A stretch of 64,000 nucleotides of DNA from Polytrichum commune (taxonomy: Eukaryota; Streptophyta; Polytrichopsida; Polytrichales; Polytrichaceae). The stretch covers positions 33,542,001 to 33,606,000 of the forward strand of contig OX485809.1 in assembly GCA_950295325.1 (NCBI GenBank). Reading direction: 5' to 3'. A program made the translations under genes and the position numbers. The notes below the pieces were generated by a model, which worked only from the letters and a program-made list of their open reading frames with translations, was not told where the DNA came from and made no database searches. Positions 9,633-63,769 of this stretch are shown here, one piece after another (positions within the stretch are counted from its first letter, which is position 1; every line of letters starts with the position of its first letter).

Positions 9633-9792
9633 AAATGGCCATCTCTTTTTATAGAACAGATTGAGCAGAGGACCCACTCTAGAATGTTACGGGAGTTGGT
9701 GCCATGTTCGTAGCCCTTTTCACACCCAACCATTCCGATGACCTCGAACAAGCGAATGAACTACACTACACTACACCCAATCTAACCCGCAC

Positions 9793-9942
9793 ACATAACA
9801 TTATTCAGATCCATGACAATGTTCTGTGGAACGGACAATTCTTAGCAGAATATTTCTCACATGCGGTCGGAATGTGAATCATATTTTGTAGAATATTGTC
9901 AGTCCCACATAACATTGTTATAAATCTGAATAATGTTATGCA
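9793..9942. mobile_element. B-family palindromic MITE, copy B1
   Basis: Starts ACATAACATTATTCAGATCC and ends with the complement ATCTGAATAATGTTATGC. The inner halves carry GGACAATTCTTAGCAGAATA and TAGAATATTGTCAGTCCCAC. The whole unit folds back on itself with a short loop. Other copies are near 24165, 32664, 38219, 50271 and 62157. Confidence 0.75.
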
Positions 9943-10019
9943 TGGGAACGTCCTCTAGTAGATTTTTCAAATTGTAACAAAGCGTTCTTATGACTTACAT
10001 AAAAGCTTACAACAAAAGA

Positions 10020-10500: not shown

Positions 10501-12334
10501 CCCAAAATGTTAGTATCCCACACATTACTTCAGTTATAGTCCACCTTCGATATCTATCTAGTATACATGGAGGGGCAATACTTTTTGTCTACGACCGGAA
10601 GACCGTTCCGAAAGAAGCTTGCATATGTGCACAACCCTAACATCTATCAATCCTAGAATCTCACAATCTATGTTTTTTTAAAAGAATCTAGGAGATTTGG
10701 AGTCTCATATGTATTCTCCAATAAAGTAGCTCAAGTTTTTGGGCTCCTGATTCTAAGAATACGTGTAATCCTACCACCTTGATGGGCCAAATTGCCAAAC
10801 AAAGAAAAGATTTCTCAATTTGGGCTTGGATTCTGTGGGGTATGTAAGTAGTTGCATTATATAAGATGTGATGTGATTTTAAGGTTTTTGAGGGGCTAGG
10901 TTTTTTGTTTTGCTAGTAGTGTGGGTTACATTCATAATTAGTGGAATGGAGGTGTATAAAAGAAGAGTTTTTTTTTAAAGAAGAAGAAGAAGAATCTCAC
11001 AACAAAATTTCAAACATGTTTTTCTTGCAACATCAAGTGGCAGTAACTTCCGAGTTGCAAGTTCACCTCTAACCAAAGTGAACACAGAAAGTCACGTGGG
11101 ACATTGACTCTATATATTTGCATATGAGCTCCATGTGAAAGATTGAGTGGGACCTATCTAGGGATCTTCTTATCACAATGTTGGGCCACATCGATCATGG
11201 CAAGCAAGCACATCGGGGAGCTAGAAACATCATGGAGCATGTATCATAGCCATTGCCACATCACATCTAGAATACAATTCAAAGGCTCAGAGGAACCACA
11301 TGGCCTTACCATGGCAATTGCCACACATGCCTAAAAAAAAAGAGTTTAAAAAGGTAACGCATGTATCCGGGTACCGGCGTGAATGTTAGTCCGTAAGCCT
11401 TATGCCACATTCCTCACAAGCAACCCCACGTGTCAATACGGTGCACCCTAACCACAAAGTGGGGTGCATGTAAAGTTATTTGTGTTGGGTCCCTTAACCC
11501 CTAAGTGTCTAAGTGGCACATATTGGGCCTCTCCAAGCAGAAAAACATTGTCTTTCAACAACATGCTTTCATTTTTAGTTAATCATGTCAACAATGACCT
11601 TGTTTCAAATCAACATATTCCTCAAGTGTATGGGTATGAATAAGTTAACAATTTAATTTTAGTGAAGACCCAAGTTCAAATACGCAACATGGGTGTCCTT
11701 GGTTGCAAGTACATAAATTGTATCATGATCATCAATGTCTCTGCCCCTCATAATGCAATTCACCACATCAAAAGAAAAGGTTATCTGGAAAACATTTACA
11801 TGCAATCTTTGGGTTGACTCACGTGTGAAGTTGTCAAAGGAAATACAAAAGTGCATCTTGCCTATACATTGCAAAGACTATTCTCAACTAAAGGTCCTCC
11901 TTCTTTTAATAGTTACTTTGCAATGGTTGAATGCGCATGACAAACAATTGGAGGTATTTTTGGTATAAGTAGCTAGAAAACTTACTGCTCCATCATCCAA
12001 AGTAATTGTCATAAGCTAACAAAAAATTAGATTGTCAAAATCAACTAAAAAACATACCTTTGCATATATTTCATACTATTTCAAGGCTTTTATGTTGGAT
12101 GAATGAGAGGTACACTGTTATGCAACATTTTGCTCTTGTCTTCGATTTTTAAGCAATATGTTAAATATATTTTTTGAATGATATAGTCACCAAGTTGGTG
12201 CACAAGCCATCACTAGTCTATTGTACATGGAGGGGTAATGTTTTTTTTGTTGAAACCATGAGATGGTTCCAGTTGAGGGGAAAATCCCCCCCCCCCCCCA
12301 AATGCATGTGGGCAATGAACGGAAAGTACCAATC
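10501..12334. other. Intergenic, no gene seen
   Basis: AT-rich sequence with short unrelated frames. A phrase CATGGAGGGGTAATG / CATGGAGGGGCAATAC is shared by about 12228 and 10567, so a degenerate dispersed repeat is present. A 14-base C run lies at 12286-12299. Confidence 0.5.
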
Positions 12335-12545
12335 CGTACTTATAGATGAACCGGTTGAGGTTGAGAAATAACCATTTGAAGTTCAAGACTTTTAGAAAAA
12401 ATTACTTATCCTTTTAGAGGACTCTATTGAATATATCTCAAATTAATGAAGGAAAATTGGAAGATTACAAACATGTTACCGGTTGGCCTTGGAAACACCA
12501 CTAGGATCTTGAGTGATTATGCATGCCAAAAATTTCCATAGACAT
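12335..12545 (+). repeat. R2 interspersed repeat copy
   Basis: Contains GATGAACCGGTTGAGGTTGA near its start and CATGTTACCGGTTGGCCTTG near 12473, followed by ACTAGGATCTTGAG and GCATGCCAAAAATTTCC. Uninterrupted (no SINE). Confidence 0.6.
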
Positions 12546-12589
12546 TGAATGCATGACATGTGGATAACTTAAGTAAAGGAAAGCTTCTA

Positions 12590-15500
12590 TATTGATTGAG
12601 TATATACAATGTATGTAGTGAGGACTACATACATTGCATAGGCAAACAATTATTATTTGCACTTAACGACCTAGGACAATTAGGAATAGTCTACCAAGGA
12701 TTAGCCAAACACATCAATGCTAAATACATCAATATACAACACCTCCCCAAACTTCACTATCAAGCAAGCTCATCATCGCCTATCACTCACAATATGTTAT
12801 TATTAGAAAGAAAATATGAAATATTCATAAATACCACCAATAAAAATTTCTCAATACAACAAACTCCTCTTGAACTCGCATGGAAACACACACCCAATAC
12901 GCTTTATTCTTTCAAGAAGAGGAAAAACATGCCATTAAATACCTCAACAAACACCACATGTATAGCATCACTACCATCACCCAAATTCAAAACCTAACCA
13001 CCATCAAATCTTATCCCCACAAGAATTCAAAATAAAATTCAAAGCTTGAGCCTCAAGACTAATCAATGAAGCCTTAAAACAAGCTAAAACCCTTTCCCCA
13101 CCCGCAACCCAACCAATAGCCACACCCCCACCACAAATACCAATGTATGCTCTAAACACCAATAACAACAATGGACATCTCAACACCAACACAAAAACCA
13201 CCTCACACAAAGATAAATGGGGAGCCCAAGCAATCAAGCAATCCTACCTATGCTAATGGAACACAACCTCAATCACCACCAAATGGGTAGGAGAATCCCA
13301 ACTTCTCCACACAAATAACATTGCCTTAGACCACAACTTATTCCTAATTTATAAATTTACACAAGACACATATAATAGAAACACACTAGCCCCTATTAAT
13401 CATGTATCAATTTCTCCCAATCCAAAGATCAAAGATTCATTAGACCCCCTATAGAAGCCTCACACTTGACCCTGAACATGAAAGCATACAACCCAGATAA
13501 GGACATCCGCGTATCTCAACCCACTATCCAAATCCGAAGACCCGACACACACATTTTGACCACATGGGAACACACATCATCTCCATCCCGCTCACAATAC
13601 TCTAGTGGTTATGGGAGAGATTCATACAAGACAGAAACTTCATATGGCTAGTTTTGGCTCATATGGACTAGCAAAATCCTCGAAATTGATGGGTGTCAGA
13701 ATAATGCACCCACCATACCATAAATCTACCATAGAAGCTATCCATTGGTCAAGAATGGCCACCAAAGAAGACCCCCCCACCACAACCATAATCATATGCA
13801 ACCACCACATCCCTCAAATATTATAAACACCCAATGCTCACCATCCCCCAAATACCTTAGAATACAAGTCCACAACCAAATGGACCCAACACCTACACCA
13901 ACACGAAAACCACACCACATCAATGATATGCATCCACAACTAAAGAATCTCTCCAATAAACCAACAATTAATTCAAAACCTCATATTCAACATCATGGAA
14001 CTTTACAACACGCGTGTGAAATCAACCCAAGACAACCCACACCCATAGATTACATAGTCAAAGTCACAAAACTATGGTGAGCAACCTCCAAAACCACCCC
14101 ATCAACCTTATATAGCAATACAAAATCCCCCACTAACATGTTCTACCACATAAATACCCCCATATACAACCCACAACAATGTATATACACAAATGGTTCC
14201 TTCATACCGACAAACGAACATGGCACTAGAACATTGTTGGCTCAAGTATATAGTCCAAATAAGACCTCCATATTGCAGACTCCTTGGAGTACCAAACATA
14301 CTACGTGCAGAACTCTACGCTCTACTCATTGCCTTGACCGCCACAAAGACCAATCACAAAACACATACATATTTATTGATGACCTCAACAACATATATCT
14401 CATAAATAATCACATTTGCCACCCCTCATCCCAACACGCGAACAACATGGAGAAATCCACAACCTCAAAACATACCTAAACTAATACCAGTGCGAACAAG
14501 AACTACGAATTGCAAGATCCAAATTCACATGCATCGACAAATGGGTGTCTAATGAGCAAATCAATCAAAAACTCTCAAACCACATTTGGAAAGCCTTAGG
14601 CATATCTAGTGCACAAATTACATAAACCTTCAAATTTTGATACGCCAAAATACATGAGAAACCACCGAAAGAACATCTTTTGGCCACTAACAGTTTCGAA
14701 CCCAAACTGCACAATTTGCCCAAACCATGAAATTGACATGTGGCCACACCTACTCTCCATTTGCACCCACCCATGCATAAAAGGCCTTCTCATTGCCCAA
14801 CACAATGAAGTAGTAGACCAAATAGCCCACACACTCCAAGTCAACAAACAAACAAACAAGGTGCTATGCCCTAGTAATTGCCAACAACCAACACAATTGG
14901 CCATGGAACATCACAATCTTGGAATGGTTAATGCAATGCACATGCCTCCCCAACACACGCACATGCATGGCCCAGCTAAGACTTGACATATTAAGTATCC
15001 TAGCCCCCCCCCCCCCCTAGACAGCCATACACCAATCCTTGCAAACCCATTAAACACTATACAATTCCTAAAATTCACCTATTGCCATAAAATTTGTTTT
15101 TAAAAACAAAACAAAACCAAATATGACCCCCTCGTTCATATGCTAGAAATTGCAAGATGGAATGTTAACCCCCTTATTACTGTCACAATAAGGGTATGAG
15201 GAGCCATATACAAAAAATCACTCGAAGCCTTAGAAAATTTCAAAATACCCCCTCAAGAAGTCAAAAGACTCATAAAATACATACATCAAATAGCCATAAA
15301 ATACCTCACATACCTTGTCCTAAATAAAAGAAAGCTTGACAACAATCAAAGCTTAGTTGACTTGCCCCCATGAACCCAAACACCCACACCTAATTTACCG
15401 AAAACTCACAAACGGCACCCCCCCCCTTTCGAAAAGAGTATTTAAAGGAGCCCACATCCCGGAAGGTAGGAAGTACACCTACCATGTCGCTTAGTAAAAT

Positions 15501-15590
15501 GAGAGCATGGTAAGGAAGAATGGGCTCCCATTCATGTCAATGCAAATAAAAAACACCCATGTTATTATTGTTATTGTTATTTATGTTTTA
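12590..15590 (+). pseudogene. Decayed LINE (non-LTR retrotransposon), C-terminal part
   Basis: The plus strand carries a patchwork of frames interrupted by many indels. At 12596-12997 there is a 133-codon frame of the linker type found before RNase H in plant LINEs. At about 14170-14420 an RNase H-like region is visible across two frames: IYTNGSFIP (the usual TDGS aspartate is N here), NILRAELYALLIALTA, and FIDDLNNIYLINNHICHPS. At about 14690-14830 a Cys/His segment reads CTICPNHEIDMWPHLLSI then HNEVVDQIAHTLQ, like the zinc-binding tail of plant LINEs. A further coding-like stretch, KSLEALENFKIPPQEVKRLI, lies at 15206-15370. The unit ends in a TTATTG-type simple repeat near 15560-15585, a typical LINE 3' end. 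No reverse transcriptase core remains upstream, so it is 5'-truncated. The plus strand is strikingly A/C-rich. Confidence 0.6.
15004..15017 (+). repeat. 14-nt poly-C run
   Basis: An uninterrupted C homopolymer inside the LINE remnant, one of about ten runs of 12 or more G/C bases in this AT-rich window. Confidence 0.9.
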
Positions 15591-15700
15591 TATTGTCTCA
15601 ACAACCCAACGAACTTTCATTATTGAAAGTTGAAATCATGAGTAAGACACCGTTGCACTGTGTAATTCCAAATAGTAACATGCACTATTGGTATAATCAA

Positions 15701-15886
15701 TGTACACCATGTTTGGTATTCAATGTCACTTACTACTTGGTATTCATAGTCAAATTGGTTGTTTGGACACCATAAAACATCAACATCTTTATTTGGCAAA
15801 AATTGACATTAACAATAAAATGTTATAGCAATGCGTAACTCCGAATAGTAAGTGACACTAAATACCATAAATAGTTTAGTGCAATA
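15701..15886. mobile_element. M-family MITE, diverged copy M3
   Basis: Contains the family's subterminal TGTCACTTACTACTTGG on the left and AATAGTAAGTGACACTAAAT on the right, with eroded outer ends. A further inverted fragment of the same family (ATTCCAAATAGTAA) sits just upstream near 15664. Confidence 0.6.
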
Positions 15887-15921
15887 CACTTGCACCACTG
15901 TTAAGGAAATTAGAGAACTAC

Positions 15922-16010
15922 AACATTAAGGTAAACGAGGCTAATGTGGACACCTCTAGCTTTGTGGAATCATCTAGCCGATGGATTCAAGCATTAGAAT
16001 CTTGAGCAGG
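15922..16010 (+). repeat. R1 repeat, left part (split by solo LTR C)
   Basis: CATTAAGG...GAGGCTAATG and CTTTGTGGAATCAT...CCGATGGATT match 61413-61500. The match breaks exactly at GCAGG (16006-16010), where LTR C begins, and resumes at 23294. No recognised protein is encoded. Confidence 0.75.
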
Positions 16011-16447: not shown

Positions 16448-17732
16448 TATGAGCCCAAAATGAGTGCTCATATTTGTTTTATGTTTAGGATCTACTTAGA
16501 ATTGCATTTGGAGTGTTGTTAAAACAATCAAAAGTATAAAAAGAGTGAGGCTTGGTGTGGTTTATGTTTTAGGCTTTAAGCCATTTTGTGTGGTTAAGTA
16601 GAAGTTTAATGATATTAGGGAGTGTTGTGATTAAGTGAGTAGTGTTTGAGGAAGCAAGGGTAAGGTCCTTTGATTTAAATGTTTGAATTAGAACATGCTC
16701 TTGTTGGTTAAAGGGTGAAGGTTAGTGGATAGGATAAGGTCCTACTAAGTAGGAGAAGGCTAAAGGGCTTGTGGTCTTGGGTGCCCTCTCCTCCTCCTCC
16801 TCCTCTTCTCTCTTCATTCTCTTCTCCTCCTCTCCTCTCTAGGATTTGGTAGCATTTTAGAACTAGAACATGTGTGGGAATTAGGTAGGGAAATTAGCAG
16901 GGGATTTAGGGGAATCTTTAGGATTAAGTGAGGAGATTAGTAGGGGACTTTGGGAATTAAGTGGTTGAGCTCTTTGAGCTAGGAGCTCTCTATCGACTCT
17001 GGAATTGCAGAGGTTACTATTTGTTGGGATTGTAGAGGCTACTGCTGCTAGAATTGCAGAGGTTACTACTGCTGGGATTACAGAGGTTACTGCTGCTGGG
17101 ATTGTAGAGGCCACTAATGCTGGGATTACAGAGGTTACTGCTACTGGGATTGTAGAGGCTACTGCTGCTGGAGTTGCAGAGGTTACTATTACTGGGATTA
17201 TAGAGGTTACTACTGCTGGGATTACAGAGGTTACTGCTGCTGGAGTTGCAGAGGTTACTATTGCTGGGATTGTAGAGGCTACTGCTGCTGGGATTACATA
17301 TTTAATGGTGGTGCTATAGATTACAATGCAAGTTGGGTGGATGTTAATGTTGGGTTGTTTAAGGGTAGGGGCTAGTGGTTTGGAGAATACATTAAGCTAT
17401 AGTGTAGCTAAGTAAGCTTAGCATGAAGCATTTAGCTAGGGAGTTAGTCATTAGGGTGTGAAAGCCACAAGATGTTAGGAGATGGTATTAGTGGGTTGGA
17501 CTTGTGGTTGAGTGATGTGGGGGTGTAATAGAGTACACTAATAGTGCCATCATAGAGAAAAGTGTTCTTTAACACTTGTAATCTTGTTATGGAATAAATT
17601 AGTGTACACGAATTGATGAGAAATGTATTGAATTCTCACACCTTTGGTAAGATGGAGTCATACGAACACGAATGTGATATCCACTCCCTCACCCGGACTA
17701 GGACGCTTAAGGGTGGGTGGTTTGGCCTCACA
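16448..17732 (-). mobile_element. Solo LTR copy A (inverted, inside LTR C)
   Basis: On the minus strand it runs from TGTGAGGCCAAACCACCC to ATTTTGGGCTCATA (1285 bp). It is flanked by a perfect 5-bp TSD GCAAC (16443-16447 and 17733-17737). Its first 300 bp match C from 16011 in inverted orientation, and its last 330 bp match 22978-23293. It carries a 24-bp minisatellite at 17000-17297. The stretch GTCTTGGGTGCCCTCTCC near 16771 preserves the empty version of the site where the PIF/Harbinger element inserted in copy C. Confidence 0.88.
17000..17297 (+). repeat. 24-bp minisatellite in solo LTR A
   Basis: About 12 tandem units of roughly GGGATTACAGAGGTTACTGC plus TGCT, with unit-to-unit variants (TTGTAGAGGCTACTG, TTGCAGAGGTTACT). 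Because 24 is a multiple of three, the tract stays open in several frames and produces repetitive pseudo-proteins of no evident meaning. Confidence 0.9.
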
Positions 17733-17774: not shown

Positions 17775-18297
17775 AGCTAAGCATCCACCTTAACCAGTTG
17801 CCCCAGCCGTCTCCCAACTGATTAAATCCACCTTACCAGCTGCCGAAGGCAGTCTCCCAGCTAATTAAATCCACCTTCCAGCTGCCGAAAGCAGTCTCCC
17901 AGCTGATAAAATCCACCTTCCAGCTGCCGAAGGCAGTCTCCCAGCTGATTAAATCCACCTTACCAGCTGCCGAAGGCAGAATCCCAGCTGATTAAATCCA
18001 CCTTCCAGCTGCCGAAGGCAGTCTCCCAGCTGATTAAATCCACCTTACCAGCTGCCGAAGGCAGAATCCCAGCTGATTAAATCCACCTTCCAGCTGCCGA
18101 AGGCAGTCTCCCAGCTGATTAAATCCACCTTACCAGCTGCCCAACAGTCTCCCAGCTGATTAAATCCACCTCACCAGCTGCCCCAGCAGTCTCCTAGCTG
18201 ATAAAATCCACCTTACCAGCTGCCGAAGGCAGAGTCCCAGCTGATTAAATCCACCTTTCAGCTGCCGAAGGCAGTCTCCCAGCTGATTAAATCAGTA
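17775..18297 (+). repeat. 41-43-bp minisatellite in solo LTR C
   Basis: Tandem units containing CAGCTGATTAAATCCACCTT followed by ACCAGCTGCCGAAGGCAGTC, about twelve copies. Two length classes differ by the TTACC/TTCC choice. CAGCTG is a palindrome occurring twice per unit. Unrelated in sequence to the minisatellites of copies A and B. Confidence 0.9.
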
Positions 18298-19610: not shown

Positions 19611-19856
19611 GAGGGCACCCAAGACCACAACCCCTTAGAGCGTCCCCACCAGCAGAGGTATAAGTCAGTTGAACGGCACTCCTGGAAATCCGGTGCCCAG
19701 GACGCCAAGTTCTAACGTCCACCAGTCGACGCTAACGCCATAAAGGGTGCCGGACCGGGCATTTGGGAGGAGCTCTTCGGGTATATTGGCCTCGGGTACC
19801 GTGTTCTGCCCGCCAACGCCATCCGGCAGTTAGCCCAACTTTGGACTTATTCCACC

Positions 19857-21095
19857 ATGTCAGGAAGGGGGGGGGGTGTGCCTGCAACGGGTGGGAGGAC
19901 CAAGAAGGGCAGGAACTTCTGCCCGGAGGAGGAAGAACAGTGTTGCCGAAGTTTTATGCATACTTCCACTGATGCCAGGAGAGGGATAGGGCAGAAGAAT
20001 GCACAATTTTGGATCAATGTAGCAACGCACTATGCTAGACACAAACCCGAGGGAGGAGCTGATCGTCCTGCTAGGTCTCTAGAGACAAAATGGTCTGACA
20101 TCAAGCAATCTGTCGCCAAGTTCAGTGGTTGCTATCAGTCAGTGAGAGATCTGAATGAGAGTGGGAAGAGTGAGGATGATTTTGTATTAGATGCTATGAG
20201 CTTGTACAAGCAAAAATGTGGGAAGGCATTTGTTCTAAAACATTGCTGGTTGTTGTTAAAGAGCTATCCTAGGTTTGTGGCAATATTTATGGGCAAGCGA
20301 AAGGGTGGAGGGTTTGATCCGCCCTCAAGAGAGGGGCTGCCTGTTGATCGTCGCGATCTGCTTTCTCCAAATGGCCAGGCTCCCTCCACCGAATCGCCAC
20401 CTGCACAGACAAGACCACAGGGTGCTAAGTCGGCAAAAAACGAGCATGCACAAAGTAAGGGGAAGGAGCTAGCTTTGCGCACTAATGCAAAAGCTACAAC
20501 TGACTTTGCTGCAGCTACGTTGAAGAAAGCTGAGCAAATTGCTCAGCAAAATGCTTTTAGCTTGTTTACAGTAGAGGATAAGAACATTACCTGTGACCTT
20601 GCTAGACAGTGGCTCCACCTCCGTAGGACCCAAGAGCTTGCAAAGCTCAAGGCACAGGTTGCTGCCGAAGTTGCTGCCTCCAACGAGCCTGCTCCTCATC
20701 GGTTTGGAGTCTGCTCCAACACGCCTGTTGCACCTGCACCTGCACCAACACAAGGGTTAGGGTTTAGAGGAGATTTGAATGAAGAAGATGATGCTGATGA
20801 TGATTGTGAGGATGATTCCTCCGACTTGTTTGCAGACAGGAGGAGGGTAGCTGATCTAAATGCTTTTGGGAATGACTTCAGCCAACCAGCTTCGGATCGT
20901 GATGAGGATACAACTACCATCCTAGATTCTCAACCTAATGACTTCGCAATTAACCCTCCCCCATCACAACGTCGACGACTCTCTGCTGATCCTCATGAAC
21001 TCTTTGGCCAGTTTTGGACCCCTGCAATTCGGGAACAGTTTGTACCTAGGCAAATCTCCCCTCCATCCACATGGTTGCAGGGCTCAAGAATCTGA
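19857..21095 (+). CDS. PIF/Harbinger ORF1, Myb/SANT-like DNA-binding protein
   Basis: A single uninterrupted 412-codon frame starting in a good plant context (CCACCATGTC). Residues 17-140 match the Myb/SANT-like domain of PIF/Harbinger ORF1 and its 'NAM-associated/GST-T3-like' plant relatives: FCPEEEEQCCRSF, FWINVATHY (W52), SLETKWSDIKQSVAKFSGCY (W79) and KAFVLKHCWLLLKSYPRF (W131). Residues 205-275 form a Lys/Ala/Gln-rich probable coiled coil. Residues 296-325 are strongly acidic, and 371-376 (QRRRLS) is a possible nuclear signal. In this superfamily ORF1 binds element ends or assists nuclear import of a separate DDE transposase, which is absent here. The intact frame, among otherwise ruined neighbours, suggests recent insertion or selection. 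A broken paralogue lies at 41014-41500. A domesticated host role cannot be excluded. Confidence 0.82.
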   Translation: MSGRGGGVPATGGRTKKGRNFCPEEEEQCCRSFMHTSTDARRGIGQKNAQFWINVATHYARHKPEGGADRPARSLETKWSDIKQSVAKFSGCYQSVRDLNESGKSEDDFVLDAMSLYKQKCGKAFVLKHCWLLLKSYPRFVAIFMGKRKGGGFDPPSREGLPVDRRDLLSPNGQAPSTESPPAQTRPQGAKSAKNEHAQSKGKELALRTNAKATTDFAAATLKKAEQIAQQNAFSLFTVEDKNITCDLARQWLHLRRTQELAKLKAQVAAEVAASNEPAPHRFGVCSNTPVAPAPAPTQGLGFRGDLNEEDDADDDCEDDSSDLFADRRRVADLNAFGNDFSQPASDRDEDTTTILDSQPNDFAINPPPSQRRRLSADPHELFGQFWTPAIREQFVPRQISPPSTWLQGSRI

Positions 21096-23905: not shown

Positions 23906-24164
23906 TGACTCGAGTTCCAAAATGCTATTGTCAGATACCTATCCGACTTGACTTTCTGAGACTTGAGACCTGTATGGGTGTGTGTATTTGAGCCAAATGG
24001 AAACGACAAAGAAAGCCAAGGAAAAAGCAATCTGGCATTTAGGGTTACAGGGTTGTAACGTACTTAAGGTGAATCCAAGGGTGCGGAACGTGCAATGTGG
24101 GTGACGTGGGCCTTTCAAGTTATTAACCCTTAAAGGACCAAGGGGCTCAATATTATGGCCATAT

Positions 24165-24256
24165 ACATAACATTATTCAGATCCATAATAATGTTTTGTG
24201 GGACTGTCAATATTCCATGGAATATTCCTCTTGGCAGTCTCGCAGAACATTCATAT
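24165..24256. mobile_element. B-family MITE, half copy B2
   Basis: The left half is intact (ACATAACATTATTCAGATCC, then GTGGGACTGTCAATATTCC). The right half degrades after CTTGGCAGTCTCGCAGAAC and lacks the closing terminus. Confidence 0.6.
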
Positions 24257-25528: not shown

Positions 25529-27270
25529 TGTGAGGCCAAACCCACCACCCTTAAGCGTCCTAGTCCGGGTGATGGTTTTGAGAATCACATGTCTTGTTTG
25601 TATCTTGAAAAATGCTCCCTTCATATCCCAAGGCATTCATGTCATTTTGAATCACTTTGTTTATTAATAGTAGCCTCTTGGCTTGGGACCAAATTGGCCT
25701 TCTCAAGGGTCCAACCGGCGGCCTTGGCAACACAAGCTCTCAAGGATATTCTCCTTGCACCTTTGATTATCCTCTCCTTCCCTTTGCCATTGCTAGAGTC
25801 CTCCTCTTTCTCCATTGTTATATAAGTGATTGATTTTTATCCAAGAGGATGTAAGTGTTGAAAAACACTCCCTCAATGGTTAATCACAAATACATTCAAA
25901 AGTCACACACACACTTCCCTCCTAATGAATCCAACACTTACCTAAAAGCTAAGATGGCCTAAAATAATTCTAGTATGGTCTAGATTAAGTTTTGCGAAGC
26001 AACTAAGTTGCTAGACCTTGATTGATAAATTGCAATCTCTCAAAGGCTTAGCCTAATCCACCACTTAGTTAGCTAGCCTAACTAATTAAAAGTTAATCTA
26101 ACCAACCTAGGCTCACCCCCGGGTTAACCCCAGCTCTAACCACCTTCAACCTTAGCCCTAGTTCAGATGTCCAGCTCCTTCGGCCTTCGGCCTAGTTCAG
26201 ATGTCCAGCAGCCCTCAGCCTTCGGCCAGTTCAGATGTCCAGCTCCTTTGGCCTTCGGCCTAGTTCAGATGTCCAACAGCCCTCAGCCTTCGGCCAGTTC
26301 AGATGTCCAGCTCCTTTGGCCTTCGGCCTAGTTCAGATGTCCAACAGCCCTCAGCCTTCGGCCAGTTCAGATGTCCAGCTCCTTTGGCCTTCGGCCTAGT
26401 TCAGATGTCCAGCTCCTTCGGCCTTCGGCCAGTTCAAATGTCCCGCTCCTTCGGCCTTCGGCCAGTTCAGATGTCCAACTGCCTTCGGCCTTAGGCCTTA
26501 GCCCCCTCCAAATATTAAGCACCATCAAGTGCTTCTACTTAATCATAAATTCCACACTACAATTCTAAGCCTTATAAGTCTAACTAGAAGAGTGAATATT
26601 ATAATTCCAAATACTATAATTCCAATCCTAAAAATCTAAACACTAGAGTTAGACACTTGTTTATAAATGCCTTGAGTCTAAACCACATCTCATAATGTGA
26701 TGCTAATCTTCAAGACTAATTGGTCTTGGCTAAAAACCTTGCACACACATGTGCATCTCTCTTACTCCACACACACACAAGCTCACCCACACACTCTCAC
26801 ATACTCCCTTCTCCTCAATGGGAGAGTGGAGAGGTGAAAAACAAAGAAAGAAAGAAAGAAAATTGAGAGAGGGGAAGATAAGAAGAGAGGGGAGGAGAGC
26901 ACATGAGGGAAGGATAGGGTGAGAGGATTAGCACCTCCAATCACAATCTTTTAATCCCTTCCTCCTAAGTAGGGACTCATCCCATCCACAAAGCTCTTAC
27001 ATTCCTAAATGAACAAGGTGGATCCTAATGTGGGCATTTAACCCGCGGAGCTCATCTTGCCTCTCCTTACTCCATGCTCACCTAGTCAAGGCATCACTTA
27101 TTGAACTTAACCTTGAAACAATTACACAACACCCCCTAATGTCTAAACTTCAATCCACACCACACTTCACTCTTTTTATATTTTTGTGAACAATCATAAC
27201 ACTTCAAAGTCTAACTAAAATTGGTTTCAAAGAGTTAATCACCACATGTGGGCACCATTTTGGGCTCACA
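25529..27270 (+). mobile_element. Solo LTR copy B
   Basis: Starts TGTGAGGCCAAACCCACC and ends CATTTTGGGCTCACA (TG...CA), with a perfect 5-bp TSD ATGAG (25524-25528 and 27271-27275); 1742 bp. It shares with copies A and C the CCCTTAAGCGTCCTAGTCCG block near its start, a GA-rich tract (26815-26910), the CACTCTTTTTATA block (27167) and the terminal CATTTTGGGCTC. Its central minisatellite is different. More diverged from A and C than they are from each other, so probably older. Confidence 0.87.
26157..26500 (+). repeat. 34-bp minisatellite in solo LTR B with dimeric order
   Basis: Ten units beginning AGTTCAGATGTCC and ending GGCCTTCGGCC or CAGCCTTCGGCC. Units 1-6 alternate between an AGCTCCTT type and an A(G/A)CAGCCCTC type, giving a 68-bp higher-order repeat. 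Frames through it encode repetitive artefacts. Confidence 0.9.
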
Positions 27271-32663: not shown

Positions 32664-32829
32664 GTGAATAACATTATTTAGATCCATAACAATGTTATGT
32701 GGGACCAATACTATTCCACATACTATTCCCGAATATTCTCCCACATTCATTATGAATACTCAGGAATATTACGTGGAATATCGTCAGTCCAAAAAACACT
32801 ATTATGGATCTAAATAACGTTATGTGATG
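32664..32829. mobile_element. B-family palindromic MITE, copy B3
   Basis: AATAACATTATTTAGATCC on the left and GGATCTAAATAACGTTATGT on the right, with inner CCACATACTATTCCCGAATA and TGGAATATCGTCAGTCC halves. It lies 78 bp outside the pogo-like element. Confidence 0.72.
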
Positions 32830-38218: not shown

Positions 38219-38342
38219 ACACACAACATTACTCAAATCCATACCAACGTTCTGTGGGGCTGACATTATTCTTGGGAATATTCTATGGGATTTTGTCCGT
38301 CTCACATGACATTGTAGTGGATTTGAATAATGTTATGCAACT
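38219..38342. mobile_element. B-family MITE, copy B4
   Basis: CACAACATTACTCAAATCC on the left, GGATTTGAATAATGTTATGC on the right, with GGGGCTGACATTATTC and GTCCGTCTCACATGAC inner halves. Shorter loop than B1. Confidence 0.65.
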
Positions 38343-50270: not shown

Positions 50271-50424
50271 TTTCAAACATTATTCAAATCCATAATAAGT
50301 TTTTGTGGGACTGACATTATTTTGTGGGATATTCTTCACATTCAAATTGATTGTGAAGAATATTTTTAAGAATATTGTTTGTCCCACAAAACATTGTTAT
50401 GGATTTGAGTAATGTTTTGAAATC
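50271..50424. mobile_element. B-family palindromic MITE, copy B5
   Basis: TTCAAACATTATTCAAATCC on the left, GGATTTGAGTAATGTTTTGA on the right. Inner GTGGGACTGACATTATTTTG and TATTGTTTGTCCCACAAAAC. Central TTCACA...TGTGAA loop. Confidence 0.72.
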
Positions 50425-51150: not shown

Positions 51151-51765
51151 TCAAATTGGTGGCAACTCGAACGGGGAGTGCTATCTTGTGAGCAATGAGC
51201 AATGAGTGGCGAGCGATGAGCAATAACTTGTGAATGATGAGGAAGGTGAAATGTTTGGTAATAGGGCCACTAGTATCCTATAACCGTGGAATTTTGGCCT
51301 AAAGAATTATGATTTTAGGATTTCATAAGAAGAGGGATGAGGAGGATAAACAACATAAAATCCAAATATTTATTCATCGCTAGTAGCACTGGACTTGTTA
51401 CTATCTTTTGCCTCGTCATCTATATATATCCGAACACCTATACATTGCGAATTGACTTTGGAACTATAGCAAGATTCTTCATTTGGATATTTAACATTGC
51501 AATTGCAACATTCTCAGCATATGATGCGAGATGTGGGCTACAGCTTGGACTTCGTAGGAATTATCTATGTGCCCAAAATGGGAGGCATTTGCTCTTTCCA
51601 GTTGTATTCATGAAATAAAATCGATCAAATATGTAAATAAATTTGAAGAAATAAAAATCAACTAATAAAATTAATGAAATGGATGAATTGAATCAACAAT
51701 TATTGTATTAAAACTTACTCACAATAAAATTCAAGCATCTCCTTATTTGATAGGTCATCATCTTC

Positions 51766-53195
51766 TCATGTAAGATCTTCAATATTCTCCTTAGATGACC
51801 CCTCTTTCAGAATCTTTTCCAAAAGTGGTTTGAATATGTGCTCAAACATGTCATTATCACCCTCGAATGCAAGAAGATGTCTGCCACATGCGCGTTTTAC
51901 AAGGATAGAAGCTCCAGTGGAACATGTCAAATCAACAACGCATCCATTTGTTGTTGTAAATAATTCAATAAGGTCTTGAAAAACACGCAACAATTTTTTA
52001 TATGGCCCCTTCCAAGGGTCTTCCCGATTTTTTATTAAACATGTTTTTTTCATCCACAAAATTGAAAATCAAGTTTTTGTTTTTCAATCCAATACCAAAA
52101 AACGTGGATTTTGGTTATCTTGTGGATTTTGTGGTAGTAAAATCACTTACCAAGACATGAGCTAGAAATGTTGGAGTCTGCAAAAAAATATAAATTGTAT
52201 TTAGACATTATACAATACAAAAAACATCAAAATAACTACATAAAAACCATTGTAATGTGTAATACTTACAATGTAAGTGGGACACTCCAGATCCTTGAAA
52301 ACCATGTACGAATTCAGGCAAATAAAAGTTCTATGAACTTTCATGTTGCCGTTGTTTAAGGTTGAATTCAAAACCTTCTTGGTTTGCATATAGATAACAG
52401 AAAATAATATGAGGACGAAGTCGTCAGACAAGATGGATTTGCACAATGACATTGTTGTAATCATCCAGTTTTTATCATATTTATTCCACAGAGGAATTTC
52501 AATAAATCGATTTGAGAGGTCGAAGTTAAGACCGTTGGGAAATTGGAGAAAAATCAAGTCAACAGCGAAGGGGGTCGAACTTCCCATGACATAAAATTCC
52601 CGATTTTCATTGAAGTGAAAAACCACAAAACATCACAAATTAAGAATTGGAAACATAATTAAATCTAAATGGAAGTAACAATAATAACAAAAATACAAAA
52701 TCAAAATTACTTACATTTCCAATAAATGTCTACCATTCAATCCACTCATGAAGGCCTATATCCATCCCTTCATACTTGTTCTTGACAAAAATAGATTGAG
52801 CAAAAGAGAACGTGAGAAAATTCTTGAGTATGAATAACTCTCTTATCAAAACATTCGTTGGTGCACGATGAATCACCAAATTTTTCAAAAACAATTTGGT
52901 GATTCCTCTTTGCAAATTGGCTTTAGTTTGTTGTATGTGTTGCATTTGACTTTGTTAAGGGAGGGAAGGTTGTGCTTTATCATGCCCCTTCTTTAGCATG
53001 AAATTGTGATTGGGCTCTCACTTTATGCATTGTGAGTCACTTTGGGGGGGATTCTTTGTTTCGAGTTTTGGATTCATTTTCAACCTCCTTTGTATTCCTT
53101 AATACGAACTGCACGGGACCAACATTAATGCCATGGTCACAATGCAACCACAAAAAGCTTGAATACATGTTGAAAGTAATAACAATTGGGAACAA
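51766..53195 (-). pseudogene. Multi-exon DNA-amino-methyltransferase-like pseudogene
   Basis: Minus-strand exons in order: about 53195-53040 (SFLWLHCDHGINVGPVQFVL); 52945-52715, ending at donor GTAAGTAATT; about 52625-52270 with VDLIFLQFPNGLNFD, LWNKYDKNWMITTMSLCKSI, LSDDFVLILFS and VHRTFICLNSYMVFKDLECP, ending at donor GTAAGTATT; a 27-nt exon 52151-52177 (TPTFLAHVL) bounded by TTTGCAG and GTAAGTGATT; and about 52060-51766 with PWKGPYKKLLRVFQ, VVDLTCSTGASILVKRACG and RHLLAFEGDNDMF. LQFPNG sits where beta-class N4/N6 methyltransferases carry the catalytic DPP(W/Y) motif, and DLTCSTGA where they carry the SAM-binding FxGxG motif, in the permuted beta order. The catalytic aspartate is gone. Frames do not join cleanly at two borders and a TGA interrupts one exon. 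Probably a repeat-encoded family; the assignment is by motif. Confidence 0.5.
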
Positions 53196-53244
53196 TTATA
53201 TTAATAAAATAAATAAAATAAAATTCAAAAAACCTTAAATTGTC

Positions 53245-54265
53245 ACCACGACAACAATTTCACGTTCTTTTAATTTTCCTCATTTCTTGCTTGTTTTGCC
53301 TACCTTCAAGCTATCTATGATGAGGCACTCATATGTTTATGTAATAGTAGAGGAGGTTTGTTTGTTGTCCACTCCCTTCCCCAATTTAATTGTGATGGCT
53401 CCTTAATAGATCCTTATTTATCTCCAATGAGAACTTAAAAAAAGAAATGATGTCATGATTCCACATTGCAAAGAGTGAAAACCATTGAGAACTAAAAAGT
53501 ACCAAAAAAATTGTTGTCTCAGCACACTAAAACCCAAATATTGGTTTTTTGGGGGGTTATTTTTTAATGGTTTTGGAGTATTTCTTTCTAGTTTTCAATG
53601 GATTTTATTGCTCAAGTTGGTTTGGAATGAGTGTGGGGAGGGTAACCTTGGCAATGGCCATGCCTCCCCTCAAATTTAACGGAGGATGTGGAGACTTCAA
53701 TGTTGGCCTCCTCTATGTGAGTTTTTATTACGAAAATGAGGCCATGTGTGACAATATGGTCACCCACTTGTGTTGGAAATTAACCACACATTCATAAGAA
53801 ATGTGATGCTTGAATGCATGCCAAATGTGGCAACTAAAGTAATAATTAAAATTGTAGAAAAAAACCAAGAATACTTGAAATTGTCATCTCAGAGCCAAGA
53901 CAACAATTTCATGAATTCTTGATTTTGAAATTCCAATTTTGACCTAATTTAGTCTACAATCATGCACCACATATTTGCCCATAAGAGATTGGTGAATTTA
54001 AGGGGAGAGAAGCTTTGCTTACGCAAGCTTCATCCTAAAAAGGAGTTGTTTTCTTTTATTGTGATGGCCACATTTTGATTGCGCATTAGATGTTGATTAG
54101 TTGAGTTAGGAGTGATGTTTTAGTCACCCGTTCTTGCTCCATTAAGTTCTCAAAGCCCTTAAGAACAATAGGGAGAAATTAACACATAAATAGAATGTCA
54201 ATAAATCTAGAAATTATCGTCTTGATACTAAGATAACAATTCCTAGATTTCTTGACCTCCCCCCC
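53245..54265. repeat. Recurring small hairpins (AAATTGTC...GACAACAATTTC)
   Basis: Three similar stem-loops: about 53247-53273 (AAATTGTCACCACGACAACA), 53873-53914 (GAAATTGTCATCTCAGAGCC plus AAGACAACAATTTC) and 54213-54262 (TCTAGAAATTATCGTCTTGA plus AGATAACAATTCCTAGA). A half copy lies near 53507. The flanks share TTGTGATGGC (53391, 54059), so the region may be a degenerate tandem duplication. Confidence 0.45.
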
Positions 54266-54274
54266 CCCCCCCCC
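54259..54274 (+). repeat. 16-nt poly-C run
   Basis: Uninterrupted C homopolymer directly after the third hairpin. Confidence 0.85.
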
Positions 54275-54479
54275 ATGTTACGTCTCTATGGCTTTGAGGA
54301 CCATTCTTTCAACTAGATTTGGTGCTAACTTGGGGTTTCCCTCTTTGAAGGCCCTAGAGTGTAGCTTTGAATGCTCCCGTAGTTATTTGAATGGGCCTTG
54401 TATGGGGGGACTTACTGTTAGATTTTGATTATACTTTCTAACGTCTTTATTTGTTTGTTGATTTTGGAAATATGGCCTT

Positions 54480-56815
54480 CACATGTGCATCATCTTCCAA
54501 TTGACAAGGTTATGATGACAAAGCTTCAACTCAAGAACTGAGGACGAGCTTGAACAACCAAGATGATGTTAATGTTAGCCATATGGACAACTTGCATAGC
54601 AAAAATGTTAACAAGTTGATTGGTAATTTGCACATGCAACATGCCTCCAAATATCATCTTAGTGCGCCCTTATGTTGTCTTGTACCACTACCTTTAGTGA
54701 AACCTATACTAAGGTAGATGTCCAATCATTTGAAAACAAGTTTGTCAATGGATATCATGGAGGTGATAGAGTACTATGTGTTTTCTAAATGAACATCAAG
54801 GGAAATATAGGGATGTGACTCCTGACACTTATGATCATTGGCAAGCCCTTCAAAATTATTTTAATTTATTTTTCTATAATGATAATGATGTGGGTGTGTT
54901 GAAGGGGAATATGTTATGGGTTTAGGAGGGCACCCACAAAGGTAGTGCATGGTGTTATCACATAAATCGTCACCATTGTGATGACGAGGACTGGCATTAT
55001 TTGATGGATTAAATTTTCTTGAGTCTATTTGACTTTGGTAGTGTATTATTGGATGCAATGCACAATGTCAACAAGTACCGCATCCACCGCATCAACTTGG
55101 CTTGTCATTATAAAGTGAGTTTTGTGTTTTTTTTTTATTCTATGTTCACTCACAAAGAACTAAACTCTCAACTTATTTCCATTTTTTGAAGGTCCACATA
55201 AAATGACCATGTGAAGACCAACTTGGTTCACAAGTTAAATCTTATGAAGAGCTTTGGCACACTAAAGAATTTTGTGATCTTTGTAAGACGAGCATTGAAA
55301 ATTGTGCAAGAGTAGATATATGAAGAACACATGGTCTCTGTCGGCATTGGATGTATTAATTCTCAAAACTTATACAAGATTAATTCTCTTGGACACTCAA
55401 TTCATCTTTTTTCCATTTGCATCAATGTTAACTAATGTCTATCAATGTGTAGCAAGAGATAGTCGCAACAGTAGAGGAGGGAGCTTGCAAGTACAAAGAC
55501 AAAACACTTGTCGCATCTAGATATGATAGGGGTGAAGTTACTAATGTCATCTACCACAAGAAGAACTATGTTAGGTATAAAGAAGGGAGAACTAGACAAG
55601 CTATTTTCCATAGCTACCCTTGAGCATGGCATCCATTTTCTGTGAGGTGATTCAATGCCTCTATAATTTTTTTGTATCCTTTTCATGCACTTACAAACAC
55701 AAATTTTGTGGATGTTTTCTAGATCGTAAGCAACTTGGAATGAGCACCATCCCTTCAATGACTTTGGAGAAATTGCAGGTGAGTTCAACCTTTTATGCTA
55801 ATTCAAAGTACAAGGCATGTTGTTTGTGTTGGTGGAATGCCATAAGAATGTCTAGACATCTCCTCAATTTCAACTTGGCAATGTTAAACAAACTAACCTT
55901 GAAACATGGCTTGTAAAAACTTCATTTTAGGCTCATGTAATATTATTCACTTGGTTATTGTGCTTATAATTATTATGCTTTCCAATTGCAATGGTTATAA
56001 TCTCTCTCTCTCTCTCTCCATGTGGCAATTGGAGTTTTGGATCAATCTACTTTGTAATGTTGTCCTTGGTCCACTTATATTTGTCCCACTAGAGGAAAAG
56101 GTGGAGACAACTCAAGTAACTCTCTAACAAAATTGGGAAGATTTGAATGTATTAGTTGATAATCGTGAGGTGGCAACCGCCAAGGTTGAGAATGTTGGCA
56201 AACGTGGAGCCAAATCGAACCCCCCACTAAGGGACCCAACGCTTTGGCACCATTGGAAGTTCTTGTGAATACACCAATTCCTTTTAAAATGCAAACTCCA
56301 ATTACACAAGCTCCTTCTCTTGCTCTCAATCATTCACAACATGTTGTCCGATAACAAGGTTGCGGAATGCCAAATGTTGTATGCCAATTGTATCCATTAT
56401 GGCAAGGAATATCTTCATCACGATGATTATGGAGAATGAAGCCAATAAGCATCATGTACTAGTCAAAACATTTGACTTTGTGAAGAGAGTAACATATTTA
56501 ATCCGTATTAACATTTTTTAAGGTTCATATTTGGTTAGTTTCTCATAGATGGTCCAAGAGCTTCACAAAGATGATTACCACGATTGATTACATGTGTCAT
56601 TTGGTGCATTGATTACATCAAACTTGCAACTTTGACCAAATTATTGCAGATTTATTGGAGGGGCTTCATGTGTCCTCTCCTCCTAGCACCACGCGTACAT
56701 TGAATATGCACAACAAGAGTATATTGAGGCAATTTGTCAACCCTAATGGAACAACGATGCTTGCATGGTTGTGTTTCTTCTCGAATTTAAGAATGTTAGG
56801 GATGATGTAAGGGTA
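54480..56815 (+). pseudogene. Multi-exon pseudogene with ParB-like N-terminal region (tentative)
   Basis: Coding-like segments in order: VSHMDNLHSKNVNKLIGNLH, YHLSAPLCCLVPLPL, SFENKFVNGYHGGDRVLCVF, DVTPDTYDHWQALQNYF and VLKGNMLWV-stop-EGTHKGSAWCYHI, then HHCDDEDWHYLMD and LLDAMHNVNKYRIHRINLAC. The exon ends at 55114 on GTGAGT, and the next begins at 55192 after TTTTTTGAAG (QVKSYEELWHTKEFCDLCKT). Then come MKNTWSLSALDVLILKTYTR, LILLDTQFIFFPFASM, and an exon ending LGMSTIPSMTLEKLQ at a GTGAGT donor (about 55778). Later parts read NWEDLNVLVDNREVATAKVE and DLLEGLHVSSPPSTTRTLNM. The EGTHKGSAW stretch recalls the G-x-H-R core of ParB/sulfiredoxin-like domains. Many stops and shifts. Sequence past its 3' end (56860-56920) is repeated, inverted, at 51190-51240 beside the methyltransferase-like pseudogene, suggesting one family. 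Confidence 0.42.
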
Positions 56816-57121
56816 TAGGATACTACTGGGTGTATAACCAATCGATGTATCCCCCCACTGCTCATGTGTTATTGCTCACCACTCACTGCTTCTTGTTCAT
56901 TGCTCATTTGATAGCATTCCCATTTGAAAGCCATTGCTCTGAGTGTAATTTTGAGTATATAGACTTGACAATATAATTGAGATACAATGACAATTGTCAA
57001 ATCTCATATTAATTATAGTATACTATATTTAAGTATATTATTCAGTTTTATTTTAAGTTTGAACAACATAACACCAATTTGAAGCTAGATTTGTGGCATA
57101 AATTTCTTGTAGATTGTACAA

Positions 57122-57525
57122 TCAAGGCGATCACACCCCCTTACGTTTCATAACCACGTGTGATAAAAGTTGCTACCTTATATTATATGCCATAGATAAT
57201 TTTTTAAATTATGATATTTTTCTACATATACATAACCATTGATAATATCGTTTGTATATTTTTTGAAATTTTTAGTCATCTTCATTTTTGTAGTAATTGT
57301 TTAGTTCAATTCTACGTCATTCTAGTTAGAAACGGTATTTAAGAAAATTAAAAACAAATATCATTAAATTTTGTTTTTTTTACTATGTAACAAACACCAT
57401 GTATATTTACTCATGAAAAAAATTAATCAAATTTTGACCCATTTTGGTGATGCTTTATGTAAAAAATATATCTTTTTATTGCACATGGTGTTCATCTTGA
57501 CAATGGAGTGCACCCCCCCCCCCCG
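57122..57525. mobile_element. Mutator-type MITE with 10-bp TSD
   Basis: Flanked by identical GATTGTACAA (57112-57121 and 57526-57535). The interior from about 57150 to 57500 matches 63390-63750 closely (GCCATAGATAATTTTT, TTCTAGTTAGAAACGGTA, CATTTTGGTGATGCTTTATG). Right terminus CTTGACAATGGAGTGCACCC; left terminus poorly conserved. A 9-10-bp TSD is typical of Mutator-like elements. Confidence 0.7.
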
Positions 57526-62120: not shown

Positions 62121-62156
62121 ACATGAAAAAGTAATCAAATAACACCTACGTACCTT

Positions 62157-62308
62157 ACATAACATTATTAAGATCCATAACAATGTTTTGTGGGATTGAC
62201 AATATTCCACAGTATATTCCCACATCAAATTGGATATGGGAATATTTTGTGGAATATTGTCAGTCCCACAAAACATTGTTATGGATCTTAATAATGTTAT
62301 GTATGCAT
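62157..62308. mobile_element. B-family palindromic MITE, copy B6 (best preserved)
   Basis: ACATAACATTATTAAGATCC at left and the exact complement GGATCTTAATAATGTTATGT at right. The halves are almost perfectly complementary through AATATTCCAC / GTGGAATATT to a loop near CATCAAATTGGATATGGG. Confidence 0.85.
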
Positions 62309-63343: not shown

Positions 63344-63769
63344 CACAGGGAGGTCACTCCATTGTCAAGTTGAACACCACGTGTGAACAAAGTTTGCTAC
63401 CCCTAAATTACATGCCATAGATAATTTTTAAAATTATGATAATTTTTTTCTACATATACATAATCATTGATAGTATTTTTTATATGTTTTTTCATATTTT
63501 TAGTCATCTTCATTTTCTACAGTAATCGTTTTAGTTCAATTCTACATCATTCTAGTTAGAAACGGTAAATTTTTATAAAAAAACCCATCAAATTTGGTTA
63601 CCATTTTTTACTATGTAATGAATATTGTGTATATCTACTCATGAAAAAAGAAATTGACAAAGTTTTGACCCATTTTGGTGATGCTTTATGTAAAAAGTGT
63701 GTATATATATTATTTATTTATTTAGGTTCGTATGTGGTGCTCAACTTGACAATGGAGTGACCTCCCCGT
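63344..63769. mobile_element. Mutator-type MITE, second copy, with clear TIRs
   Basis: Left AGGGAGGTCACTCCATTGTC plus AAGTTGAACACCAC and right GTGGTGCTCAACTTGACAAT plus GGAGTGACCTCCCC form an inverted repeat of about 33 bp. Near-matching 9-bp flanks GTTCATGGC / GTGCATGGC are a plausible TSD with one change. Interior matches 57122-57525. Confidence 0.75.

What the first reader, a model, noticed from the sequence alone, without database searches (positions are those of the whole stretch)
51766..56815. Candidate undescribed repeat-encoded protein family: ParB-like region plus DNA-methyltransferase-like region
A minus-strand multi-exon pseudogene has methyltransferase motifs in beta-class order (LQFPNG in place of DPPx, then DLTCSTGA). 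A plus-strand multi-exon pseudogene 1.3 kb away has a ParB-like EGTHK core. Both are followed by the same GAGCAATGAG-type 3' sequence in inverted orientation, so they may be two halves or copies of one gene. ParB-like plus amino-methyltransferase proteins are known mainly from phages and bacteria. A dispersed plant family of this type would be notable.
Basis: partly seen in the sequence, partly recalled or inferred. Interest (0 to 1): 0.72.

Follow-up and report, generated by a model that had tools for sequence, protein, structure and literature searches.

The report
Decayed plant transposon with methyltransferase-like gene
The two broken genes appear to lie inside one old, dead DNA transposon; one looks distantly like a bacterial-type DNA methyltransferase, the other is unidentified, and transposons carrying a related pair of protein domains are already in print for algae.

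Summary
The shared "GAGCAATGAG" sequences are terminal inverted repeats (TIRs), 51174-51285 and 56811-56921, 80/113 identical, bounding one 5,748-bp element with a weak 9-bp target-site duplication (6/9): Mutator-like. Both pseudogenes lie inside, pointing outwards; they do not resemble each other. The minus-strand gene resembles beta-class amino-methyltransferases: unedited read-through gives PF01555 at E 0.016 (profile 30-219 of 221), below Pfam's cut-off, with unrelated families at E 0.012 and 0.021 in the same six-frame scan; PHROGs, PDB and phage searches agree on the class. An independently chosen profile did not single it out. The ParB claim failed every sequence test; it rests on one motif and on precedent. 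That precedent is in print: Ectocarpus Sola1-1 carries a ParB-like plus amino-methyltransferase protein, with similar ones cited from green and red algal transposons (PMC12477816). No transposase was found; intact relatives could not be sought because no plant genome is held. Best reading: a dead, non-autonomous Mutator-like element with a methyltransferase-like gene and a possibly ParB-like one. An interesting lead, unproven as a family.

The parts
51165..51173 (.). left copy of candidate 9-bp target-site duplication (ACTCGAACG)
   Evidence: 6/9 match to the right copy; other lengths 2-12 match poorly; chance of >=6/9 is 0.014 for this one length
51174..51285 (+). left terminal inverted repeat, with GAGCAATGAG-type subrepeats
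51723..52026 (-). methyltransferase-like exon C (DPWKGP..., DLTCSTGA, C-terminal half of the domain), one internal stop; its 5' border is uncertain (intron phase does not fit)
   Evidence: donor at 51722
52151..52177 (-). possible 27-nt mini-exon between TTTTTTTGCAG and GTAAGT
   Evidence: sequence; acceptor and donor at 52178 and 52150
52270..52587 (-). methyltransferase-like exon B (LQFPNG in place of DPPY, then KSILSDDFVLILFS), no stop in 106 codons
   Evidence: donor at 52269; alone it gave only Tap-RNA_bind at E 0.074 in Pfam
52715..52954 (-). possible upstream exon A, tentative
   Evidence: open frame 52730-52954, donor at 52714; no family match
54472..54717 (+). possible first exon of the plus-strand gene, tentative, one stop
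   Evidence: only HcgB at E 0.09 in Pfam
54782..55114 (+). plus-strand gene core with EGTHK at 54926-54940; two stops
   Evidence: donor GTGAGT at 55115; no ParB match
55192..55320 (+). next exon of the plus-strand gene after a T-rich acceptor, one stop
55723..55778 (+). later small exon between TTTTCTAG and GTGAGT, tentative
   Evidence: acceptor ending 55722 and donor 55779
56811..56921 (-). right terminal inverted repeat
56922..56930 (.). right copy of candidate 9-bp target-site duplication (ATTTGAAAG)

Best explanation
Window 51174-56921 is one old, dead DNA transposon with ~112-bp TIRs and probably a 9-bp target-site duplication, of Mutator-like (MULE) type. It has no recognisable transposase, so this copy would have been moved by a transposase made elsewhere (inferred). 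It carries two intron-containing accessory genes reading outwards from the middle. The left gene derives from a beta-class (permuted) amino-methyltransferase of the N4-cytosine/N6-adenine kind (moderately supported). The right gene is unidentified; [quoted passage not shown] Proposed mechanism, inferred throughout: in intact relatives the right-hand protein binds the element, perhaps the GAGCAATGAG subrepeats of the TIRs, and the methyltransferase marks it, which would alter silencing or transposition. In this copy the place of motif IV reads LQFPNG rather than DPPY and stops break the frames, so it makes no active enzyme. My confidence by step: one TIR element 0.9; MULE type 0.6; methyltransferase ancestry 0.65 (put down from 0.7 on rechecking, where an unrelated family scores as well); ParB-like partner 0.35; self-marking function 0.25.
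For: TIRs. Target-site duplication. Methyltransferase: whole-element minus read-through, stops as residues and nothing spliced, gives PF01555 as the best match of that frame, E 0.016, profile 30-219 of 221, window 52470-51835; stitched exons PF01555 E 0.15 (longer) and 0.046 (shorter), the only Pfam match of each; PHROGs three matches, all methyltransferases, best phrog_3008 'DNA methyltransferase' E 0.0096; PDB DpnA E 0.41 and 0.47, top 2 of 3; phage tblastn: of the 20 rows listed (181 records matched in all) 18 lie on genes annotated as methylase or methyltransferase, 1 on an unannotated record (E 0.02, lowest of the listed rows), 1 on a hypothetical protein. NCBIfam's only match, CmoA (an S-adenosylmethionine-binding enzyme, recalled, not a DNA methyltransferase), E 0.068, covers the same motif-I residues. 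Splice signals: 4 GTRAGT donors in 1.8 kb of the minus gene against 0.59 per kb per strand in the window. Precedent: PMC12477816. Transposase absent: six-frame Pfam scan.
Against: Every methyltransferase E-value is marginal and below Pfam's gathering score (15.6 and 14.1 against 26.7 bits). In the same six-frame scan DUF755 scores slightly better (E 0.012, plus frame) and Terminase_5 nearly as well (E 0.021, same minus frame). In one search single exons drew unrelated families at E 0.06-0.11, and exon C alone ranked DUF1125 (0.065) above PF01555 (0.21). The reversed control protein hit DUF975 at E 0.0009, and 2 of 5 shuffles hit unknown PHROGs at E 0.06-0.19. A profile of 7 ParB-fused phage methyltransferases, chosen by a ParB query and not by this protein, gave the unedited chunk 2.5 bits (rank 6) and the stitched protein 1.5 bits (rank 9 of 1,280 sequences searched), with unrelated chunks ahead. 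The strong score (E 2e-7) is circular: 4 of its 6 training proteins were found by matching the query. ParB: none of 7 searches. The target-site match is only 6/9. GTRAGT donors on the plus gene (2 in 2.4 kb) are near expectation. AlphaFold of the EGTHK region was uninformative, pLDDT 42.8. No relatives in viral contigs or genome contigs.
Confidence: 0.47

Rival explanations
1. A Pack-MULE: a non-autonomous MULE that picked up two unrelated host gene fragments by chance; nothing to do with self-methylation.
For: TIR and 9-bp target-site type; no transposase; exons with introns; plus-strand gene has no family.
Against: A beta-class DNA methyltransferase is not an ordinary plant host gene (recalled), so the left fragment would be an odd host capture.
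Confidence: 0.22
2. The methyltransferase likeness is chance in decayed sequence; the element carries genes of unknown families.
For: Marginal E-values, with unrelated families equally good in the same scan (DUF755 E 0.012, Terminase_5 E 0.021); reversed control reached E 0.0009 against an unrelated family; independently chosen profile failed.
Against: Pfam, PHROGs, PDB and phage searches agree on class and residues, in the right motif order over almost the whole Pfam profile.
Confidence: 0.17
3. One ParB-methyltransferase gene, as in Ectocarpus Sola1-1, that was split by an inversion or by the joining of two element copies head to head.
For: The algal precedent encodes both domains in one 1104-aa protein; the two genes are in opposite orientation here.
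Against: No similarity between left and right halves (best tblastx E 0.12); one TIR pair encloses both; ParB not confirmed.
Confidence: 0.12
4. A relic of a phage, bacterial or giant-virus insertion.
For: ParB plus methyltransferase proteins occur in phages: 712 records match a ParB-like query, 12 of the 30 rows listed are annotated as methylase or methyltransferase, and 7 of 8 fusions examined carry both methyltransferase motifs.
Against: Splice signals; TIRs; no relative in viral or prokaryote contigs.
Confidence: 0.02

Closest known systems
Sola1-1_Ec32 ParB-like + amino-methyltransferase accessory protein, Ectocarpus (PMC12477816; passages seen, part 1 of section 5); [quoted passage not shown]
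   Same: Amino-methyltransferase gene carried as accessory cargo in a DNA transposon; possible ParB-like companion
   Different: There one 1104-aa protein in a 21.5-kb Sola1 element with a transposase gene on the other strand; here two separate decayed genes in a 5.7-kb TIR element with no transposase found; ParB unconfirmed
Pack-MULE / non-autonomous Mutator-like elements of plants (recalled)
   Same: Long TIRs, probable 9-bp target-site duplication, gene cargo, no transposase
   Different: Cargo is not a recognisable host gene; superfamily not proven by any transposase relative
Beta-class N6_N4_Mtase (PF01555), e.g. DpnA 5hek
   Same: Motif order (IV before I); only Pfam match of the stitched protein and top PDB match
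   Different: LQFPNG and DLTCSTG stand where DPPY and DPFxGSG are expected; score below the gathering cut-off
Bdelloid rotifer N4CMT (PMC8885841; passages read)
   Same: Bacterial-type amino-methyltransferase in a eukaryote
   Different: A host gene with a chromodomain that marks transposons; not transposon cargo

Membership tests
Mutator-like element (MULE) | long TIRs | tested here: met
   112 and 111 bp, 80/113 identical
Mutator-like element (MULE) | 9-11 bp target-site duplication | tested here: inconclusive
   9 bp, 6/9 identical; chance 0.014 for one length
Mutator-like element (MULE) | MULE transposase or a relative that encodes one | tested here: inconclusive
   none in six frames at E 0.5, as expected of a non-autonomous copy; relatives not testable
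N6_N4_Mtase (PF01555) | profile match over the gathering score | tested here: not met
   15.6 bits and 14.1 bits against 26.7
N6_N4_Mtase (PF01555) | permuted motif order, IV then I | tested here: inconclusive
   profile 30-219 in order and LQFPNG (52548) before DLTCSTGA (51933), but the motif IV column itself lies outside the aligned stretch and its reading is by spacing
N6_N4_Mtase (PF01555) | catalytic DPPY-type motif | tested here: not met
   LQFPNG at that place; pseudogene
ParB/Srx | sequence or profile match to ParB | tested here: not met
   Pfam, PHROGs, NCBIfam, PDB, phage tblastn and two home-made profiles of 12 and 17 phage ParB proteins: none
ParB/Srx | fold | tested here: inconclusive
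   single-sequence AlphaFold pLDDT 42.8, pTM 0.36; no fold search was run on it
ParB-methyltransferase transposon accessory protein (algal type) | both domains in one protein | tested here: not met
   the two candidate regions lie on opposite strands here; ParB unconfirmed
Pack-MULE | cargo homologous to a host gene | not testable with these tools
   no plant genome held

The most novel reading that the evidence does not exclude
Plants host a lineage of Mutator-like transposons that encode, on two divergent genes, a ParB-like TIR-binding protein and an N4-cytosine/N6-adenine DNA methyltransferase, with which the element marks its own DNA with a non-5mC modification.
Probability: 0.2. Interest if true: 0.68.

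Novelty: new variant of a known kind. Interest (0 to 1): 0.4.

Why it matters
If intact relatives exist, a plant transposon would carry its own amino-methyltransferase. That would give a concrete enzyme to test in the disputed question of N6-adenine or N4-cytosine methylation in plant DNA, and would extend a transposon accessory system reported for algae to plants, in another element type. As it stands, this single copy is dead and its ParB half is unconfirmed.

Tried and rejected
Rejected: 'two copies of one gene' (tblastx between halves, best E 0.12); 'shared 3' UTR' (it is the TIR pair). Other copies in the window: blastn of the element at E 0.01 gave only the TIR pair and three short palindromes inside the element; tblastn of the stitched proteins gave nothing outside the element better than E 0.42.

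Led nowhere: own-genome search (none held); viral contigs with the two window ORFs (0 of 5 and 0 of 9 candidate stretches confirmed) and with the TIR (0); genome contigs with the stitched methyltransferase (0 of 39 candidates confirmed) and the TIR (0); hhalign (P 0.16 methyltransferase, 0.4 ParB); AlphaFold (no fold search was run on so poor a model); PF01555 search of phage record L001 (0 of 1); the fern genome paper PMC9477723 (passages: no ParB, its one 'DNA methylase' is the C-5 cytosine kind). One search gave the phage ParB proteins used as training set. Ten paper searches: among the rows listed, one paper (PMC12477816) that I recognised as treating ParB plus methyltransferase in eukaryotic transposons; lists were mostly capped (e.g. 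20 of 5,539) and most listed papers were not opened. One search's strong methyltransferase score is discounted as circular. The Rfam gathering scan and tRNA scan of the window found nothing.
Full report
The observation. Both sets of motifs are in the sequence. On the minus strand, LQFPNG starts at 52548 and DLTCSTGA at 51933, in one frame; on the plus strand EGTHK starts at 54926. The 106-codon block 52587-52270 has no stop, and the 103-codon block 52026-51718 has one; the EGTHK core has two stops in 112 codons. Consensus donors sit at the proposed exon edges: four GTRAGT in 1.8 kb of the minus gene (52714, 52269, 52150, 51722), against 0.59 per kb per strand in the window; on the plus strand two (55115, 55779) in 2.4 kb, close to what is expected. 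These look like intron-bearing eukaryotic pseudogenes. The window is plausibly plant: a 459-aa frame at 19716-21095 matches the NAM-associated domain (PF14303, E 9.9e-8), which I recall as a plant family.

One transposon, not two gene copies. The pattern GGGARTGCTATCNNNTGAGCAATGA with up to 3 mismatches occurs twice in the window, at the two tips, with 0 expected; the pattern was drawn from the tips themselves, so only its absence elsewhere is informative. In a control of 494 random segment pairs from the window, one scored above the TIR pair (134 against 110; the next was 71). The element is 5,748 bp. Immediately outside lie ACTCGAACG and ATTTGAAAG, 6/9 identical; no other length from 2 to 12 fits, and 6/9 has a chance of 0.014 at one length. 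Long TIRs and a 9-bp duplication point to a Mutator-like element (recalled criterion). A six-frame Pfam scan of the interior finds no transposase at E 0.5. The left and right halves show no similarity (best tblastx E 0.12).

The methyltransferase. The least edited test is the read-through of the whole element interior: in one minus frame PF01555 is the best Pfam match, E 0.016, 15.6 bits, profile positions 30-219 of 221, window 52470-51835. The same six-frame scan also gave DUF755 at E 0.012 (plus frame), Terminase_5 at E 0.021 (same minus frame) and NDNF_N at E 0.34, so the score is not outstanding by itself. Single exons: exon C gave PF01555 E 0.21 behind DUF1125 (0.065); exon B gave only Tap-RNA_bind (0.074); other pieces drew unrelated families at E 0.06-0.11. 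Stitched exons gave PF01555 at 0.15 and 0.046, the only match of each. PHROGs gave three families, all methyltransferases, E 0.0096-0.028. PDB gave three: DpnA twice (E 0.41, 0.47) and an Erm protein (E 1.5). Phage tblastn matched 181 records; of the 20 rows listed, 18 lie on genes annotated as methylase or methyltransferase, 1 is unannotated (E 0.02, the lowest listed) and 1 hypothetical. NCBIfam's one match, CmoA (E 0.068), is another kind of S-adenosylmethionine-binding enzyme (recalled) and covers the same motif-I residues.

Against it: all scores are below Pfam's cut-off of 26.7 bits. The reversed control protein hit DUF975 at E 0.0009, better than any Pfam or PHROGs methyltransferase score, so a single marginal E-value here means little; 0 of 5 shuffles hit Pfam and 2 of 5 hit unknown PHROGs at E 0.06-0.19. 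A profile of six phage methyltransferases ranked the unedited chunk and the stitched protein first among 1,280 sequences, E 2e-7 with the next unrelated chunk at E 1, but four of the six were found by matching the query. A profile of seven ParB-fused phage methyltransferases, found with a ParB query instead, gave the unedited chunk 2.5 bits (rank 6) and the stitched protein 1.5 bits (rank 9), behind unrelated chunks, though with motif I in register. The case therefore rests on agreement in class, place and motif order between libraries. I put methyltransferase ancestry at 0.65, down from 0.7 after rechecking. The motif IV place (LQFPNG) lies outside the Pfam alignment; reading it as motif IV is an inference from spacing.

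The ParB claim. Pfam, PHROGs, NCBIfam, PDB and phage tblastn gave nothing ParB-like (the one phage hit, E 4, lies antisense to an annotated hypothetical gene). Profiles of 12 and then 17 phage ParB proteins ranked the stitched core 114th of 452 listed and then not among 460 listed. AlphaFold without relatives gave pLDDT 42.8. I keep ParB at 0.35 only because of the motif (G-x-H in a plausible setting, by eye) and the precedent.

Precedent. PMC12477816 (passage; part 1 of that section) describes in Ectocarpus Sola1-1 a 1104-aa accessory protein with a ParB-like domain and a methyltransferase domain predicted to make N4-methylcytosine or N6-methyladenine. [quoted passage not shown] Of the works it cites for this, I saw only the reference entries (Iyer 2011; the start of Petroll and others). 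So the combination is not undescribed. In the rows listed by ten paper searches, judged by title and start of abstract, I saw no land-plant case; the library is open-access and most lists were capped, so this is weak evidence of absence.

Mechanism. Shown: one TIR-bounded element with two outward-facing broken genes. Moderately supported: left gene of methyltransferase ancestry, Mutator-like type. Inferred: mobilised in trans; a DNA-binding partner; self-marking by methylation in intact relatives. This copy is dead.

Verdict.

Noticed in passing
19716-21095 (+): 459-aa open frame with a NAM-associated domain (PF14303, E 9.9e-8); may be a host gene or a transposon ORF1.
   Followed up: partly
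12001-16000: Four kilobases of strong strand asymmetry: GC skew -0.317 and AT skew about +0.22 in both 2-kb bins, unlike the rest of the window.
   Followed up: no
50275-50417; also 9789-9944, 24163-24230, 32665-32825, 38222-38340, 62155-62306: A near-palindrome (71-nt arms) with related copies elsewhere in the window, some matching in both orientations: a MITE-like family.
   Followed up: no
16999-17295, 17783-18293, 26143-26498: Minisatellite arrays of 24-, 42/85- and 34/68-bp units.
   Followed up: no
53861-53926 and 54197-54256: Small inverted repeats between the two genes inside the element, perhaps nested insertions.
   Followed up: no
57153-57519 and 63376-63767: A direct repeat of about 370-390 bp, 79% identical, whose first copy lies just outside the right end of the element.
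   Followed up: no
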